Shown here in pieces: positions 300 to 4,768 of a stretch of 43,574 nt of DNA. The translations under genes were made by a program, and so were the position numbers. Within the stretch, counting starts at the first letter, position 1; every line of letters starts with the position of its first letter. This DNA comes from Fusobacterium sp. IOR10 (GTDB lineage Bacteria > Fusobacteriota > Fusobacteriia > Fusobacteriales > Fusobacteriaceae): assembly GCF_010367435.1 (NCBI RefSeq), contig NZ_WJWY01000018.1, forward strand, positions 1-43,574, given 5' to 3'. Below the pieces are notes generated by a model. The model did not search any database. It saw only the letters and a program-made list of their open reading frames with translations, and was not told the origin of the DNA.

Positions 300-2030
300 A
301 TGGAAAAAATATATGGAAAAGGAATATACGAAGGGGTAGTAATTGGGAAACCGTTTTTAAAGTATGAAAAGAAAATAGAAATAGAATCATATTCTTTAGA
401 AGATGAAGATATTGAAAAGGAAATTTTAAGATACAAAGAAGGAATAAAGTTTGCACAAAGTAAGTTATCTAAATTAATAAATGATTTAAAAAGTAAAGTT
501 GATAAAAAGGATCTACAGATATTAATTGTGCATTTTGAGATTCTAAATGATTCTGTTATTCTTAAAGAAATAGAGGATATGATTAGAAAGGAAAAAATCA
601 ATGTAGAAGAAGTAGTAAAAAAAGTTTTGGGAAAATATATAGACTTATTTTCTAAAAAAACAAATTTACTCTATCAACAAAGAGCTTCAGATTTAAAGGA
701 TATAAGAGATAGATTATTATTTGCTCTAATAAGAAGAAAAGAACTTTATAATAATGTAGAGGGGAAAATATTAATAGCCAAAGAGATATTACCATCTGAA
801 TTATTAGAATTAGTTAATAATCATGTTGAAATAAAAGGTATTATAATGGAATTTTCAGGAACAACTTCTCATGTGGCAATATTAGCAAAGTCACTAGAGA
901 TACCAACTTTCATGGGAGGAAAGGATTTATTTTCTGAAAAATGGAGTGATAAGATTATACTAGATACTTATCACCTTAAGGCAAGGGTTATAAATAACCC
1001 TATTCCAGAAGTTATAAGAGAGTATAAAAAATTACAAAAATTTATAAAAAAAGAAGATGAAGAAATTCAAAAAAACATAGACATGCCATCAATAACACTA
1101 GATGGAGTTAAAATAAATCTAGATTTTAATGCAGATCAGAATATAGATTTAAATGTTTTGAAAAAAACAAATCCACGTGGGATAGGACTTCTTAGAACAG
1201 AGTTTATTTACATGGAAAGAAATAATTTACCAACAGAACAAGAACAAGTGGATATTTATAATAAAATAAGTCAGGAAATTGGAAATGAAAAGCCTATAAT
1301 AATAAGAACTCTAGATATTGGAGCAGATAAAAAATTATCCTACTGTCCAATGGACGCTGAAGAGAATCCATCCCTTGGAGAAAGAGGAATAAGATTTACT
1401 TTAAGAAGAAAAAGGATATTAAGAACTCAACTGAGAGCAATATTGAGAAGCGCTTACGGGAAAAAAATAAAAATTATGCATCCAATGATATCCTCTAGAT
1501 CTGAGATTTTAAAAATCAAACAAATTTTAGACGAAGTAAAAGAAGAATTAAGAAGCGAAGGATTAAATTTTAAAGAAGATATAGAGACAGGTATTATGGT
1601 AGAAGTTCCTTCAGTCATATTTATGGCAAGAGAATTAGCTGAAGAAATAGATTTTTTTTCCATAGGAACTAACGATTTGGCTCAGTATATTTTAGCAGCA
1701 GATAGATTTTCTCAAAAAGAAAATGAACTTTATGATTACTATCACCCTGCAGTTTTAAGAGGGATAAATATATTAGCTGAAGTGGGAAGAGAAAAAAATA
1801 AAAATGTTTCTGTTTGTGGAGAAATGGGAGGAGAATTAGTAGGAATAGTTATACTTTTAAGTTTTGGAATAAAGGATTTAAGTATGGCTAAAACTTTTAT
1901 ACCTAGAGCAAGAAATATAGTTAGAAAAATAAAATTCAACGATTTGGGAGAATTAAAACATAAAATATTAAACTGTAGAGATTCAGATGAAGTTAAAAAG
2001 ACAGTGAAGAGTTTCATAGAAAAATTATAA
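300..2030 (+). CDS. ptsI: phosphoenolpyruvate-protein phosphotransferase (PTS enzyme I)
   Basis: Enzyme I takes phosphate from phosphoenolpyruvate and passes it to HPr, energising PTS sugar uptake. It is a cytosolic protein of 576 residues, the usual family length. The N-terminal half carries the phospho-histidine signature with SGTTSHVAILAKS, placing the active His at residue 191 (His189 in E. coli). The C-terminal barrel contains GERGIRFTLRR (360-370), EVPSVIFMARE (435-445), the SIGTNDLAQY segment (454-463) and CGEMGGE with the proton-donor Cys506. The ATG at 300 is supported by AAAGGA at 288-293. ptsH starts just past the stop, so the two are co-translated from the upstream promoter. Identification is secure. 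Confidence 0.97.
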   Translation: MEKIYGKGIYEGVVIGKPFLKYEKKIEIESYSLEDEDIEKEILRYKEGIKFAQSKLSKLINDLKSKVDKKDLQILIVHFEILNDSVILKEIEDMIRKEKINVEEVVKKVLGKYIDLFSKKTNLLYQQRASDLKDIRDRLLFALIRRKELYNNVEGKILIAKEILPSELLELVNNHVEIKGIIMEFSGTTSHVAILAKSLEIPTFMGGKDLFSEKWSDKIILDTYHLKARVINNPIPEVIREYKKLQKFIKKEDEEIQKNIDMPSITLDGVKINLDFNADQNIDLNVLKKTNPRGIGLLRTEFIYMERNNLPTEQEQVDIYNKISQEIGNEKPIIIRTLDIGADKKLSYCPMDAEENPSLGERGIRFTLRRKRILRTQLRAILRSAYGKKIKIMHPMISSRSEILKIKQILDEVKEELRSEGLNFKEDIETGIMVEVPSVIFMARELAEEIDFFSIGTNDLAQYILAADRFSQKENELYDYYHPAVLRGINILAEVGREKNKNVSVCGEMGGELVGIVILLSFGIKDLSMAKTFIPRARNIVRKIKFNDLGELKHKILNCRDSDEVKKTVKSFIEKL

Positions 2031-2041
2031 GGATGGGAAAT

Positions 2042-2311
2042 ATGAAAAAAATTGAGGTTGAAATAAAAAACAAAGCAGGACTACATGCAAGACCATCATC
2101 GTTATTTGTACAAGTGGCCACTGGTTTTGATTCAGAAATAAAGGTTAGATATGATGACGAGGAGATAAATGGGAAAAGTATTATGGGATTAATGCTTTTA
2201 GCAGCAGAGCAAGGTAGAAAATTAGAATTAGAAGCAGATGGAAATGATGAAGATGAAATGTTAGAAGCTCTTAAAAAATTAGTGGAAGTAGAAAAATTTG
2301 GTGAAGAATAA
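2042..2311 (+). CDS. ptsH: phosphocarrier protein HPr
   Basis: HPr receives phosphate from enzyme I and donates it to PTS EIIA domains. I prefer the ATG at 2042 to the one at 2033. The Shine-Dalgarno AAGGAT at 2029-2034 is well spaced only for 2042, and that start gives 89 residues with the catalytic histidine at exactly position 15 (KAGLHARPS). The regulatory serine falls at exactly 46 in GKSIMGLM, the site HPr kinase/phosphorylase modifies in Gram-positive-type carbon regulation. No hprK gene is in the window. The stop codon overlaps the ispH start as TAATG, which implies translational coupling. The unusual feature is the linkage of a sugar PTS pair to isoprenoid and ribosomal genes. Confidence 0.96.
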   Translation: MKKIEVEIKNKAGLHARPSSLFVQVATGFDSEIKVRYDDEEINGKSIMGLMLLAAEQGRKLELEADGNDEDEMLEALKKLVEVEKFGEE

Positions 2312-3195
2312 TGAAAATAATTAGAGCTAATAAAATGGGTTTTTGTTTTGGAGTTTCTGGCGCTATTAATTTATGTGAAAATATTTCAGAAGATAGAAAA
2401 CTTTATGATAAAACTTATATTTTAGGAATGTTAGTTCATAACAAAAATGTTGTAAAGGACATGGAAAAAAAGGGATTTATAACTATTTCTGAGGAAGATT
2501 TGCTTTTAAAAAAAGTTAAATTTAATAAAAAAGATTTAATAATTATAAGAGCACACGGGACAACAGAAGAAATTTATGATATACTAAAGAGAAGTGAGAT
2601 TAAAATTATTGATGCAACTTGTATTTTTGTGAAAAAAATAAGAGAAACATTAATTGAAGAAGAAAAAAATGGAAAAGAAATTATATTTATAGGAGATAAA
2701 AATCATCCAGAGGTAAAGGGAATAGTTTCTTTTGGCATGCATGTAAATGTGTTAGCTGGTTATGAAGAATTCTTAAATTTTAAAGTAGAAACAAATAAAA
2801 AATATTGTTTGTTGACTCAAACTACTCTAAATAAAGAAATGTTTTTTAAAATCAAAAAAAAAATAGAAAATAACTATGAAAATATAGAAATTTTTAGTAA
2901 AATATGTGGAGCAACTCACGAAAGACAAATAGCAGTTGAAAAATTAGCAAGGGAAGTAGACATAATTTTAATAGTTGGAGATTTAGCAAGTTCAAATACT
3001 AGAAAATTATATGATTTGTCAAAAAGTATAAATAGCAGAAGTTATTTAATACAAAATAAAAATGAATTAAAAAAAGAATGGTTAAAAAACATTGAAACAA
3101 TAGGAATAACAGCAGGAGCATCAACACCAGAAAAAATAATATTAGAGATAGAAAAAGATATAAGGGGGAATTTTGATGACAAACATGGATTATAA
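2311..3195 (+). CDS. ispH: 4-hydroxy-3-methylbut-2-enyl diphosphate reductase (IspH/LytB)
   Basis: IspH is the last enzyme of the MEP pathway. It reduces HMBPP to isopentenyl and dimethylallyl diphosphate using a [4Fe-4S] cluster. The three cluster cysteines are visible at residues 12 (GFCFG), 104 (DATC) and 199 (ICGATHERQ). HNK (43-45), AHGTT (81-85), HPEVKG (132-137), LTQTT (168-172) and the SSNTRKLY and TAGAST motifs also match the family. The length of 294 residues is normal for a stand-alone IspH. It starts inside the ptsH stop and ends 20 bases inside rpsA in a different frame. In a number of related bacteria IspH and S1 form one polypeptide; here they are separate (see findings). The pathway's first enzyme, dxs, is also in the window. 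Confidence 0.96.
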   Translation: MKIIRANKMGFCFGVSGAINLCENISEDRKLYDKTYILGMLVHNKNVVKDMEKKGFITISEEDLLLKKVKFNKKDLIIIRAHGTTEEIYDILKRSEIKIIDATCIFVKKIRETLIEEEKNGKEIIFIGDKNHPEVKGIVSFGMHVNVLAGYEEFLNFKVETNKKYCLLTQTTLNKEMFFKIKKKIENNYENIEIFSKICGATHERQIAVEKLAREVDIILIVGDLASSNTRKLYDLSKSINSRSYLIQNKNELKKEWLKNIETIGITAGASTPEKIILEIEKDIRGNFDDKHGL

Positions 3196-4768
3196 CGAAT
3201 TTGAGGCACTACTAGCAGAGTACCTACCAGAAGAAGGGAAAAGCGGGGAGAAAGTAGTAGGGACAATAGAAAGTAAAGAAAGAAACTTTACTTATTTAGA
3301 TGTTCCTAGCCAAGTAACAACAGTTAGAGTGAAAACTGAAGAATTAGAAAAATATAATGTTGGTGATGAAATAGAAGTAATCCTAGTCGGGGAAACACCA
3401 GAAGGAGAATTTTTAATTGGTTCTAGAAGAAGAATTGAAATGGAAACTGGATGGCAACAATTAAAAGATGCTTACGAGGCTAAAGAAAAATTAGTTGGAA
3501 GAGTAGTAAGAGAAGTAAGAGGTGGATATATATTAGAAATATTCTCTCATCAAGTATTCTTACCAAAATCTCTTTCTGAAACAAGAAATGGACAAAAAAT
3601 ATTAGGAAAAGACGTAGAAGTTTTAATAAAAGAATTAAAAGAAGAAAGAAAAGGTAAAAAAATAACAGTTTCAAGAAGAGACGTAGCAGTAGCTGTAAGA
3701 AACGAAGAATTTGCTAAAATAAATTTAGGAGATGTTCTTGAAGGAACAATTTCTGAAATATTACCATTTGGAATAGTAGTAACTCTTGGTCATTTAAGAG
3801 GATTTATACATATTTCTGAAATTTCTTGGAAAAAAGCTGAGAAAATAGAAGGATTCGAATTAGGACAAACACTAACTGTAAAAGTTATTCAATTGGAAGA
3901 AGAAAAGAAAAACATAAAATTGTCATTAAAAGCTCTAACAGTAAATCCATGGGAAACAGCAAAAGAACAATATAAAATAGGTGACGTTGTTGAAGGTAAA
4001 GTTACTAAAATATTACAATATGGAGTATTAGTAGAAATTATGGATGGAGTAGAAGGATTAGTTCATGTTTCTGACTTCACTTGGAATAAAAAGAAAGTAG
4101 CTATTTCAGAATTTGCAAAATTAGGAGATTCTTTAAAAGTTCAAATACTTGAATTTAAACCAGAAGGAAGAAAATTAAAATTAGGTGTAAAACAATTATC
4201 AGCTGATCCATGGGAAACAGCTGGGGAAAAATATAAAATAGGAACAAAATTAACTGGAAAAGTAGCAGAAGTTAAAGCTTATGGAATATTTGTAGAAGTA
4301 GAAGAAGGAATAGATGTATTTATACATCAAGCAGATTTCTGTTGGGTAGGAAACAAGAAATTTGAAAAAGGTCAAGAAATTAATTGTGAAGTTATCGAAT
4401 TAGATCTTGATGCTAAAAAAATCAAAGGAAGCATTAAAGTTTTAGAAAAAAGTCCTTGGGAAACAGTTATGGAAAACTATAAAGTTGGAGATATTGTTGA
4501 AAAACCAATAAAAAATATCCAAGATTTTGGTTTATTTGTAAAAATTGAAGAAGGAATAGATGGGTTTATACCAACTCAATTAGTTTCTAGAGATTATATA
4601 AAAGATTTAAAAGAAACATTTAATATTGGAGATTCTGTACTAGGGAAAATAATTGAAATTGACACAGAAAGACAAAAAATAAAAATATCAATAAAAGCTT
4701 ATGAATTAGAATCAGAAAAAAGAGAACAAAGAGAATTAATCGAGAAATATGGTACTGCAGGGGAATAA
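3176..4768 (+). CDS. rpsA: 30S ribosomal protein S1 (six S1 repeats)
   Basis: S1 binds mRNA at the 30S subunit and helps start translation. The 530-residue product shows six S1/OB units. The first two are divergent (around residues 20-85 and 100-170). The other four are clear, each with a G-x-V-x-x-I/V start, a central F/Y-G and a G-F/L-I/V-H segment such as LRGFIHISEISW and VEGLVHVSDFTW. SPWETV or DPWETA linkers separate repeats. The start is ATG 3176, 7 bases after AAGGGGG (3162-3168). A TTG one codon upstream is not needed. The gene overlaps the end of ispH by 20 bases and ends just before a strong terminator. Confidence 0.94.
   Translation: MTNMDYNEFEALLAEYLPEEGKSGEKVVGTIESKERNFTYLDVPSQVTTVRVKTEELEKYNVGDEIEVILVGETPEGEFLIGSRRRIEMETGWQQLKDAYEAKEKLVGRVVREVRGGYILEIFSHQVFLPKSLSETRNGQKILGKDVEVLIKELKEERKGKKITVSRRDVAVAVRNEEFAKINLGDVLEGTISEILPFGIVVTLGHLRGFIHISEISWKKAEKIEGFELGQTLTVKVIQLEEEKKNIKLSLKALTVNPWETAKEQYKIGDVVEGKVTKILQYGVLVEIMDGVEGLVHVSDFTWNKKKVAISEFAKLGDSLKVQILEFKPEGRKLKLGVKQLSADPWETAGEKYKIGTKLTGKVAEVKAYGIFVEVEEGIDVFIHQADFCWVGNKKFEKGQEINCEVIELDLDAKKIKGSIKVLEKSPWETVMENYKVGDIVEKPIKNIQDFGLFVKIEEGIDGFIPTQLVSRDYIKDLKETFNIGDSVLGKIIEIDTERQKIKISIKAYELESEKREQRELIEKYGTAGE

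What the first reader, a model, noticed from the sequence alone, without database searches (positions are those of the whole stretch)
3160..3195. A single-base change in a G5 run would fuse ispH and rpsA
ispH and rpsA overlap by 20 bases in frames that differ by one. Removing one G from the GGGGG at 3164-3168 puts the end of ispH in frame with rpsA with no stop between them, giving a continuous IspH-S1 protein (junction around D-I-R-G-I-L-M-T-N-M). Fused IspH-S1 proteins are known in some anaerobes. The G run is also the rpsA Shine-Dalgarno sequence. This could be a recently split fusion, a slippage site that makes both forms, or a sequencing error.
Basis: partly seen in the sequence, partly recalled or inferred. 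Interest (0 to 1): 0.5.

Follow-up and report, generated by a model that had tools for sequence, protein, structure and literature searches.

The report
Nested rpsA start inside ispH
In this Fusobacterium-like genome the gene for ribosomal protein S1 simply starts inside the end of the ispH gene, which is ordinary; but the same nested start signal is still present inside fused IspH-S1 genes of other anaerobes, which suggests that those genes also make a separate S1 protein.

Summary
In detail: ispH (2311-3195) and rpsA (3176-4768) overlap by 20 nt in frames one base apart, and GGGGG (3164-3168) is the rpsA Shine-Dalgarno (SD). The proposed readings (recent split, slippage, error) are not supported. 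All 7 genomes of the genus are split with the same G5 and overlap. In the family the run is exactly five in all 49 of 59 loci that have it, fused and split alike; fused loci differ from split congeners in the bases around an intact SD and start. Split is the likely ancestral state. The window shows ordinary nested-start translational coupling.

The lead is worth more than the window. All 7 fused fusobacterial genes examined keep an SD and start codon at the beginning of S1. Of 103 fused genes from a Clostridia-like phylum, 102 have GG[AG]GG and in-frame ATG/GTG at one place; the Glu codons writing that SD are GAG in 94/94 and 66/66 cases, against about 35% elsewhere. None of 32 stand-alone ispH genes has it. 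I infer that 'bifunctional IspH/S1' genes also make free S1 by internal initiation. This is sequence evidence only; the usual internal spacing (11 nt) is longer than textbook.

The parts
2311..3195 (+). ispH (4-hydroxy-3-methylbut-2-enyl diphosphate reductase), 294 aa; its last codons hold the rpsA SD and start
   Evidence: TIGR00216 263.8 bits over its cut-off 187.85; PF02401 over cut-off
3161..3163 (+). TAA, last stop in the rpsA frame upstream of its start
   Evidence: (upstream stop at -15 from the ATG)
3162..3168 (+). AAGGGGG, SD of rpsA (G5 run 3164-3168)
   Evidence: same AAGGGGG in 48 of 59 family loci; anti-SD tail seen in sister genome G004 only, of 7 genus genomes
3176..3195 (+). 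20-nt overlap of rpsA start and ispH end; the same length in 7 of 7 genomes of the genus
3176..4768 (+). rpsA (ribosomal protein S1), start ATG 3176
   Evidence: TIGR00717 397.7 bits and NF000907 426.4 bits, both below their curated cut-offs (577, 624),

Best explanation
In the window, rpsA is translated from its own ATG (3176) using an SD (AAGGGGG) that lies in the last codons of ispH; ribosomes finishing ispH probably help (translational coupling; inferred). No fusion protein is expected. The nested rpsA start is the conserved element. In Fusobacteriaceae the start sits at the very end of ispH, and its phase relative to ispH depends on small insertions and deletions around the SD and start: most species have an overlap of 1, 8 or 20 nt, and a few, more than once, have both genes in one frame and so a 'fused' ORF. 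The SD and start stay intact when that happens (shown by sequence), so the fused genes very probably make both a long IspH-S1 protein and free S1 by internal in-frame initiation (inferred). The same signal is in nearly all fused ispH-rpsA genes sampled from a Clostridia-like phylum.
For: Window. Genus 7 of 7 split with the same overlap. Family: 53 of 54 split pairs overlap, G run always five where present. Fused fusobacterial genes G024, G050, G051, G052, G058, G097 and F. vincentii: 7 of 7 keep SD and in-frame start; in g4 and g14 the internal start corresponds to the real rpsA start of split congeners. Clostridia-like set: 102 of 103 with GG[AG]GG in codons 9-11 after GASTP and ATG/GTG at codon 15 (97) or 14 (5), the five at 14 being those without ATG/GTG at 15; 66 of 592 other GG[AG]GG sites in the same ORFs are followed by an in-frame ATG/GTG. 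Glu codons GAG 94/94 and 66/66, top two of 731 column tests. Control: 0 of 32 stand-alone ispH. Internal SD stronger than that of ispH's own start in 58 of 63 genes where I could place the latter.
Against: No protein or ribosome data. Spacer from GG[AG]GG to the internal start is 11 nt in 99 of 103, longer than the textbook optimum (recalled). Gene by gene the synonymous null is weak: 37 of 103 at p<0.05, mean z -1.9; the combined p there ignores relatedness. Part of the motif (I-I-E/K-E-V) is protein sequence that could be kept for IspH's sake. One exception, L231, has SD and ATG elsewhere. Strain-level variation of G5 is untested. Coupling itself is not shown.
Confidence: 0.8

Rival explanations
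1. The window is a recently split IspH-S1 fusion: an ancestor had one ORF and a base was gained in the G run.
For: Fused genes exist in the family (G024, G050, G051, G052, G058) and the frames are one base apart.
Against: Genus 7 of 7 and sister genera 14 of 14 split; on the tree the window's clade is wholly split; fused relatives with a G run also have exactly G5.
Confidence: 0.03
2. Programmed +1 frameshift or slippage at the G run makes some IspH-S1 from the split genes (AGGGGG 3 nt before a codon is also the geometry of the prfB site, as recalled).
For: Offset 1 in the window and in 41 of 54 split family pairs; SD-like stimulator at the right place.
Against: 13 of 54 split pairs have the other offset; there is no stop at the presumed shift codon and Phe-tRNA on UUU could not re-pair on UUG (my reading); a run of five is short for slippage (recalled); the SD is explained by rpsA initiation.
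Confidence: 0.04
3. A sequencing or assembly error hides a real fusion in this genome.
For: The genome is a 74-contig draft.
Against: Same G5, frame and overlap in all 7 genus assemblies; identical error in each is unlikely.
Confidence: 0.01
4. In the fused relatives the internal SD is a pause signal (or a remnant, or an S1-binding site) rather than a start, so they make only the fusion.
For: The spacing of 11 nt is long; SD-like sequences inside genes have been said to slow ribosomes (recalled).
Against: A pause needs no start codon, yet 102 of 103 have ATG/GTG at one of two places; Val at codon 15 is GTG in 9 of 11 and the two GTT genes have ATG at codon 14; in split species the same signal must start rpsA. 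A remnant would decay at synonymous sites, and it has not.
Confidence: 0.15

Closest known systems
IspH-RPS1 'Rosetta stone' fusion proteins (Rao et al. 2015, PMC4746011, abstract and passages seen; NCBIfam NF000907)
   Same: Same two genes in the same order; fused in F. nucleatum and many Clostridium according to the paper.
   Different: The window's genes are in different frames and make two proteins. The passages I searched do not mention an internal start (terms internal, Shine, start codon, operon: 0). The paper's protein carried an N-terminal His tag, which would not retain free S1.
Translationally coupled overlapping gene pairs (general, recalled)
   Same: Downstream SD and start inside the end of the upstream gene; 47 of 265 neighbouring pairs in the sampled genome overlap.
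   Different: Nothing notable in the window; coupling was not measured.
Genes with two in-frame starts giving long and short proteins (general, recalled; methods papers listed, listing only)
   Same: What the fused relatives appear to be.
   Different: Here the short product would be a complete ribosomal protein and the long one a fusion with a metabolic enzyme.
prfB (RF2) +1 frameshift site (recalled)
   Same: AGGGGG followed after 3 nt by a YUU-type codon, +1 relation of the ORFs.
   Different: No stop codon at the shift point, no obvious tRNA re-pairing, offset not conserved in the family.

Membership tests
IspH-RPS1 fusion (NF000907) | One ORF spanning IspH and S1 | tested here: not met
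   Separate frames in the window; IspH 319.5 and S1 426.4 bits, each below the cut-off 624.
IspH-RPS1 fusion (NF000907) | ispH directly followed by rpsA | tested here: met
Translationally coupled overlapping pair | Same strand, overlapping, downstream SD inside the upstream gene, conserved in relatives | tested here: met
Translationally coupled overlapping pair | Translation of rpsA depends on translation of ispH | not testable with these tools
   needs a reporter
Slippage-prone or phase-variable run | Run length varies among relatives | tested here: not met
   Runs of 5 or more in the family are exactly 5, 49 of 49 (of 59 loci); strains of one species not held
Programmed frameshift gene | Conserved frame relation and shift site | tested here: not met
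   Offsets 41 and 13 of 54 split pairs; conserved in the genus only, 7 of 7
Two-start gene (fused relatives, not the window) | Conserved internal SD and in-frame start | tested here: met
   102 of 103 at the fixed place; 7 of 7 fused fusobacterial genes
Two-start gene (fused relatives, not the window) | Short product detected | not testable with these tools
   no proteomic or initiation data held

The most novel reading that the evidence does not exclude
The 'bifunctional IspH/S1' genes of Clostridia and Fusobacteria are really two-product genes: most S1 on their ribosomes is free S1 started internally, and the known fusion is what arises when a nested rpsA start happens to lie in phase with ispH, so its functional meaning must be rethought.
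Probability: 0.6. Interest if true: 0.7.

Novelty: new variant of a known kind. Interest (0 to 1): 0.5.

Why it matters
The 2015 paper says the roles of the IspH-S1 fusion remain to be determined and proposes stringent response or iron/oxygen sensing (PMC4746011, passages seen); it also says no other ispH or rps1 genes were found in those organisms. If the genes also make free S1, ribosomes need not carry an iron-sulphur enzyme, annotation misses a ribosomal protein in many anaerobes, and the question becomes testable with one tag or one codon change. The window itself matters little: it is the common, unfused form.

Tried and rejected
Recent split, slippage and error: rejected as above. A prfB-like +1 site: set aside (no stop, no re-pairing, offset not conserved). 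Plasmid collection by DNA: no match; by protein: fused genes in chromosome-sized or large records. The one genome-contig scan returned 59 loci, no recognisable Clostridia. Phyla of G140 and G112 held 2 and 3 genomes. One search (50 genomes of other phyla) showed no further fused gene among its listed matches. A first clostridial script picked only 65 of 104 genes and was replaced (103 of 104; L262 dropped because no single frame fitted, and its IspH ends in a stop). Literature: 10 searches; none showed an internal S1 start in ispH-rpsA. Only PMC4746011 was opened (outline, abstract, passages by term; not the whole text); one search is a listing only. The 16S tail was not found in 6 of 7 genus drafts, the window's own included.

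Full report
The observation. The coordinates hold. ispH runs 2311-3195; rpsA starts at ATG 3176, 7 nt after GGGGG 3164-3168; the frames differ by one. One base fewer in the run would join them, but so would a one-base loss elsewhere between the last upstream stop in the S1 frame (3161-3163) and the ispH stop, so the run has no special role; out-of-frame overlaps in general share the property. In the sampled 443.6 kb I count 47 out-of-frame overlaps among 265 same-strand neighbours, 22 in the same relation (simple ORF caller, starts chosen partly by SD score).

Is G5 the SD? AAGGGGG can pair with the anti-SD with one G-U. GGGGG occurs in the SD window of 27 of 380 gene starts, GGAGG in 149; about 1 GGGGG would be expected from its overall frequency. 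The 16S tail TGGATCACCTCCTTT was found in one genus member, G004 (two copies), and not in the other six drafts, the window's own included, probably because rRNA is missing from drafts (inference).

Relatives. Genus: 7 of 7 genomes split, all with G5 and the 20-nt overlap. Phylum: 98 genomes, 68 with IspH. I read 67 IspH-S1 junctions, leaving out G031 (truncated IspH) and a second IspH of G045 without S1 in the locus; G060 has no IspH match. In the window's family 59 loci have both genes. Where a run of five or more G occurs it is exactly five, 49 of 49; the other 10 have GGAGG, GAGG or GTGG. Of 54 split pairs, 53 overlap (1 nt in 13, 8 nt in 33, 20 nt in 7) and 1 has a 1-nt gap. Five are fused: G024, G050, G051, G052, G058; outside the family G097 is fused too. 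On a quick ML tree of 67 rows the state changes at least 4 times and the window's clade (g1 with g2 and g3) is wholly split. That tree has long branches, and the place of G097 is unsure.

What differs between fused and split. In genus g4 the fused G024 has AAGGGGG + 6 nt + ATG and the split G022 and G023 have AAGGGGG + 7 nt + ATG. In g14 the fused G058 has one base more than the six split loci on each side of its AGGAGG (9 against 8 nt to the ATG). In g12, 3 of 3 fused, the G run lies in another phase of the ispH frame and no split congener is held. So the SD and start stay and the bases around them change; the G run itself does not. F. vincentii, from a 2.1-Mb record in the plasmid collection, is fused with AAGGGGG + 9 nt + ATG. 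All 7 fused genes keep SD and in-frame start (ATG in 6, GTG in G097).

Clostridia-like phylum. An even draw of 119 genomes from the phylum of G148 gave 104 over the NF000907 cut-off. I fetched all 104 (30 loci, 74) and analysed 103; L262 (G219) is not fused in one frame. Counting codons from the GASTP motif, 102 of 103 have GG[AG]GG in codons 9-11 and ATG/GTG at codon 15 (97) or 14 (5); the five with ATG at 14 are those without ATG/GTG at 15. The exception, L231, has SD plus ATG at codon 27. At codon 10 Glu is GAG in 94 of 94 and Gly is GGG in 9 of 9; at codon 9 Glu is GAG in 66 of 66 and Lys AAG in 31 of 31. Elsewhere in the same genes GAG is 34% of Glu codons. The two Glu columns rank first and second of 731 column-by-residue tests; those binomial values ignore relatedness, but among 109 Glu columns of the same sequences the next highest is 56% GAG. 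The start column is the most start-codon-like of 690 columns, 99 of 103 ATG, GTG or TTG; second is a conserved Met in IspH whose few replacements are not start codons, third is ispH's own start column, 79 of 91, TTG commonest (column numbers differ by 5, the codon counts identify the column). Where I could place ispH's own start, the internal SD is the stronger in 58 of 63. The two named clostridial fused genes L151 and L152 also have an AGGAGG-type SD and in-frame ATG there; named Acetoanaerobium (L150) is split.

Controls. Stand-alone ispH genes, mostly Bacilli and Erysipelotrichia: 0 of 32 with an internal strong-SD start, Glu at codon 10 GAG in 5 of 20 (L119 without motif and fragments L142 and L147 left out). 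Other GG[AG]GG sites in the fused ORFs: 66 of 592 followed by in-frame ATG/GTG 5-11 nt on. In the same phylum 15 of 119 genomes were not over the cut-off; 14 of these have IspH. Of the 14, L276 is fused with an internal SD and ATG, and L267, at a contig edge, has an in-frame SD and ATG too; L265 and L269 are split with the rpsA SD and start in another frame at the end of ispH, as in the window; L264 has S1 beside it without a strong SD; nine show no S1 match in the locus and no AGGAGG plus start at that place, though L271 has two weaker in-frame GTG further on and L266 a strong-SD start beyond its stop. L269 and L276 are of one family (f77), a further natural split/fused pair.

Against. Per gene the synonymous null is weak (37 of 103 at p<0.05, mean z -1.9). 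The spacer is 11 nt in 99 of 103. There is no protein evidence. One genome per species means strain variation of the G run is untested.

Verdict. The window is an ordinary overlapping, probably coupled gene pair. The generalisation, that the nested rpsA start is kept when the frames fuse and so 'bifunctional' genes probably also yield free S1, was not found in print in 10 searches of the held library.

Noticed in passing
window 300-4768: Gene order ptsI - HPr - ispH - rpsA, with HPr (2033-2311) and ispH overlapping by one base; in the annotated Pusillibacter record the neighbours are cmk and an acyltransferase instead.
   Followed up: no
L149 (NZ_CP084075.1), L150 (NZ_CP154629.1): Records of 2.1 Mb and 2.6 Mb listed as plasmids that look like chromosomes.
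   Followed up: no
L151 (OY725878.1), L152 (NZ_AP023421.1): ispH-rpsA fusion genes on records called plasmids of 247 kb and 504 kb; either second chromosomes or mislabelled pieces.
   Followed up: no
L043 and L068 (G045): Two IspH genes, one beside rpsA and one apart; the bin is 70% complete with 4% contamination, so the second may be foreign.
   Followed up: no
L153 (G140); L067 (G067): IspH and S1 in the same frame separated only by a stop and a short gap, in another phylum and in family f4: a different near-fusion.
   Followed up: partly
family f4 of the phylum (G064-G096): 28 of the 30 genomes without an IspH match are in this family.
   Followed up: no
L231 (G171): The one clostridial fused gene with its SD and ATG moved about 12 codons downstream (codon 27).
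   Followed up: partly
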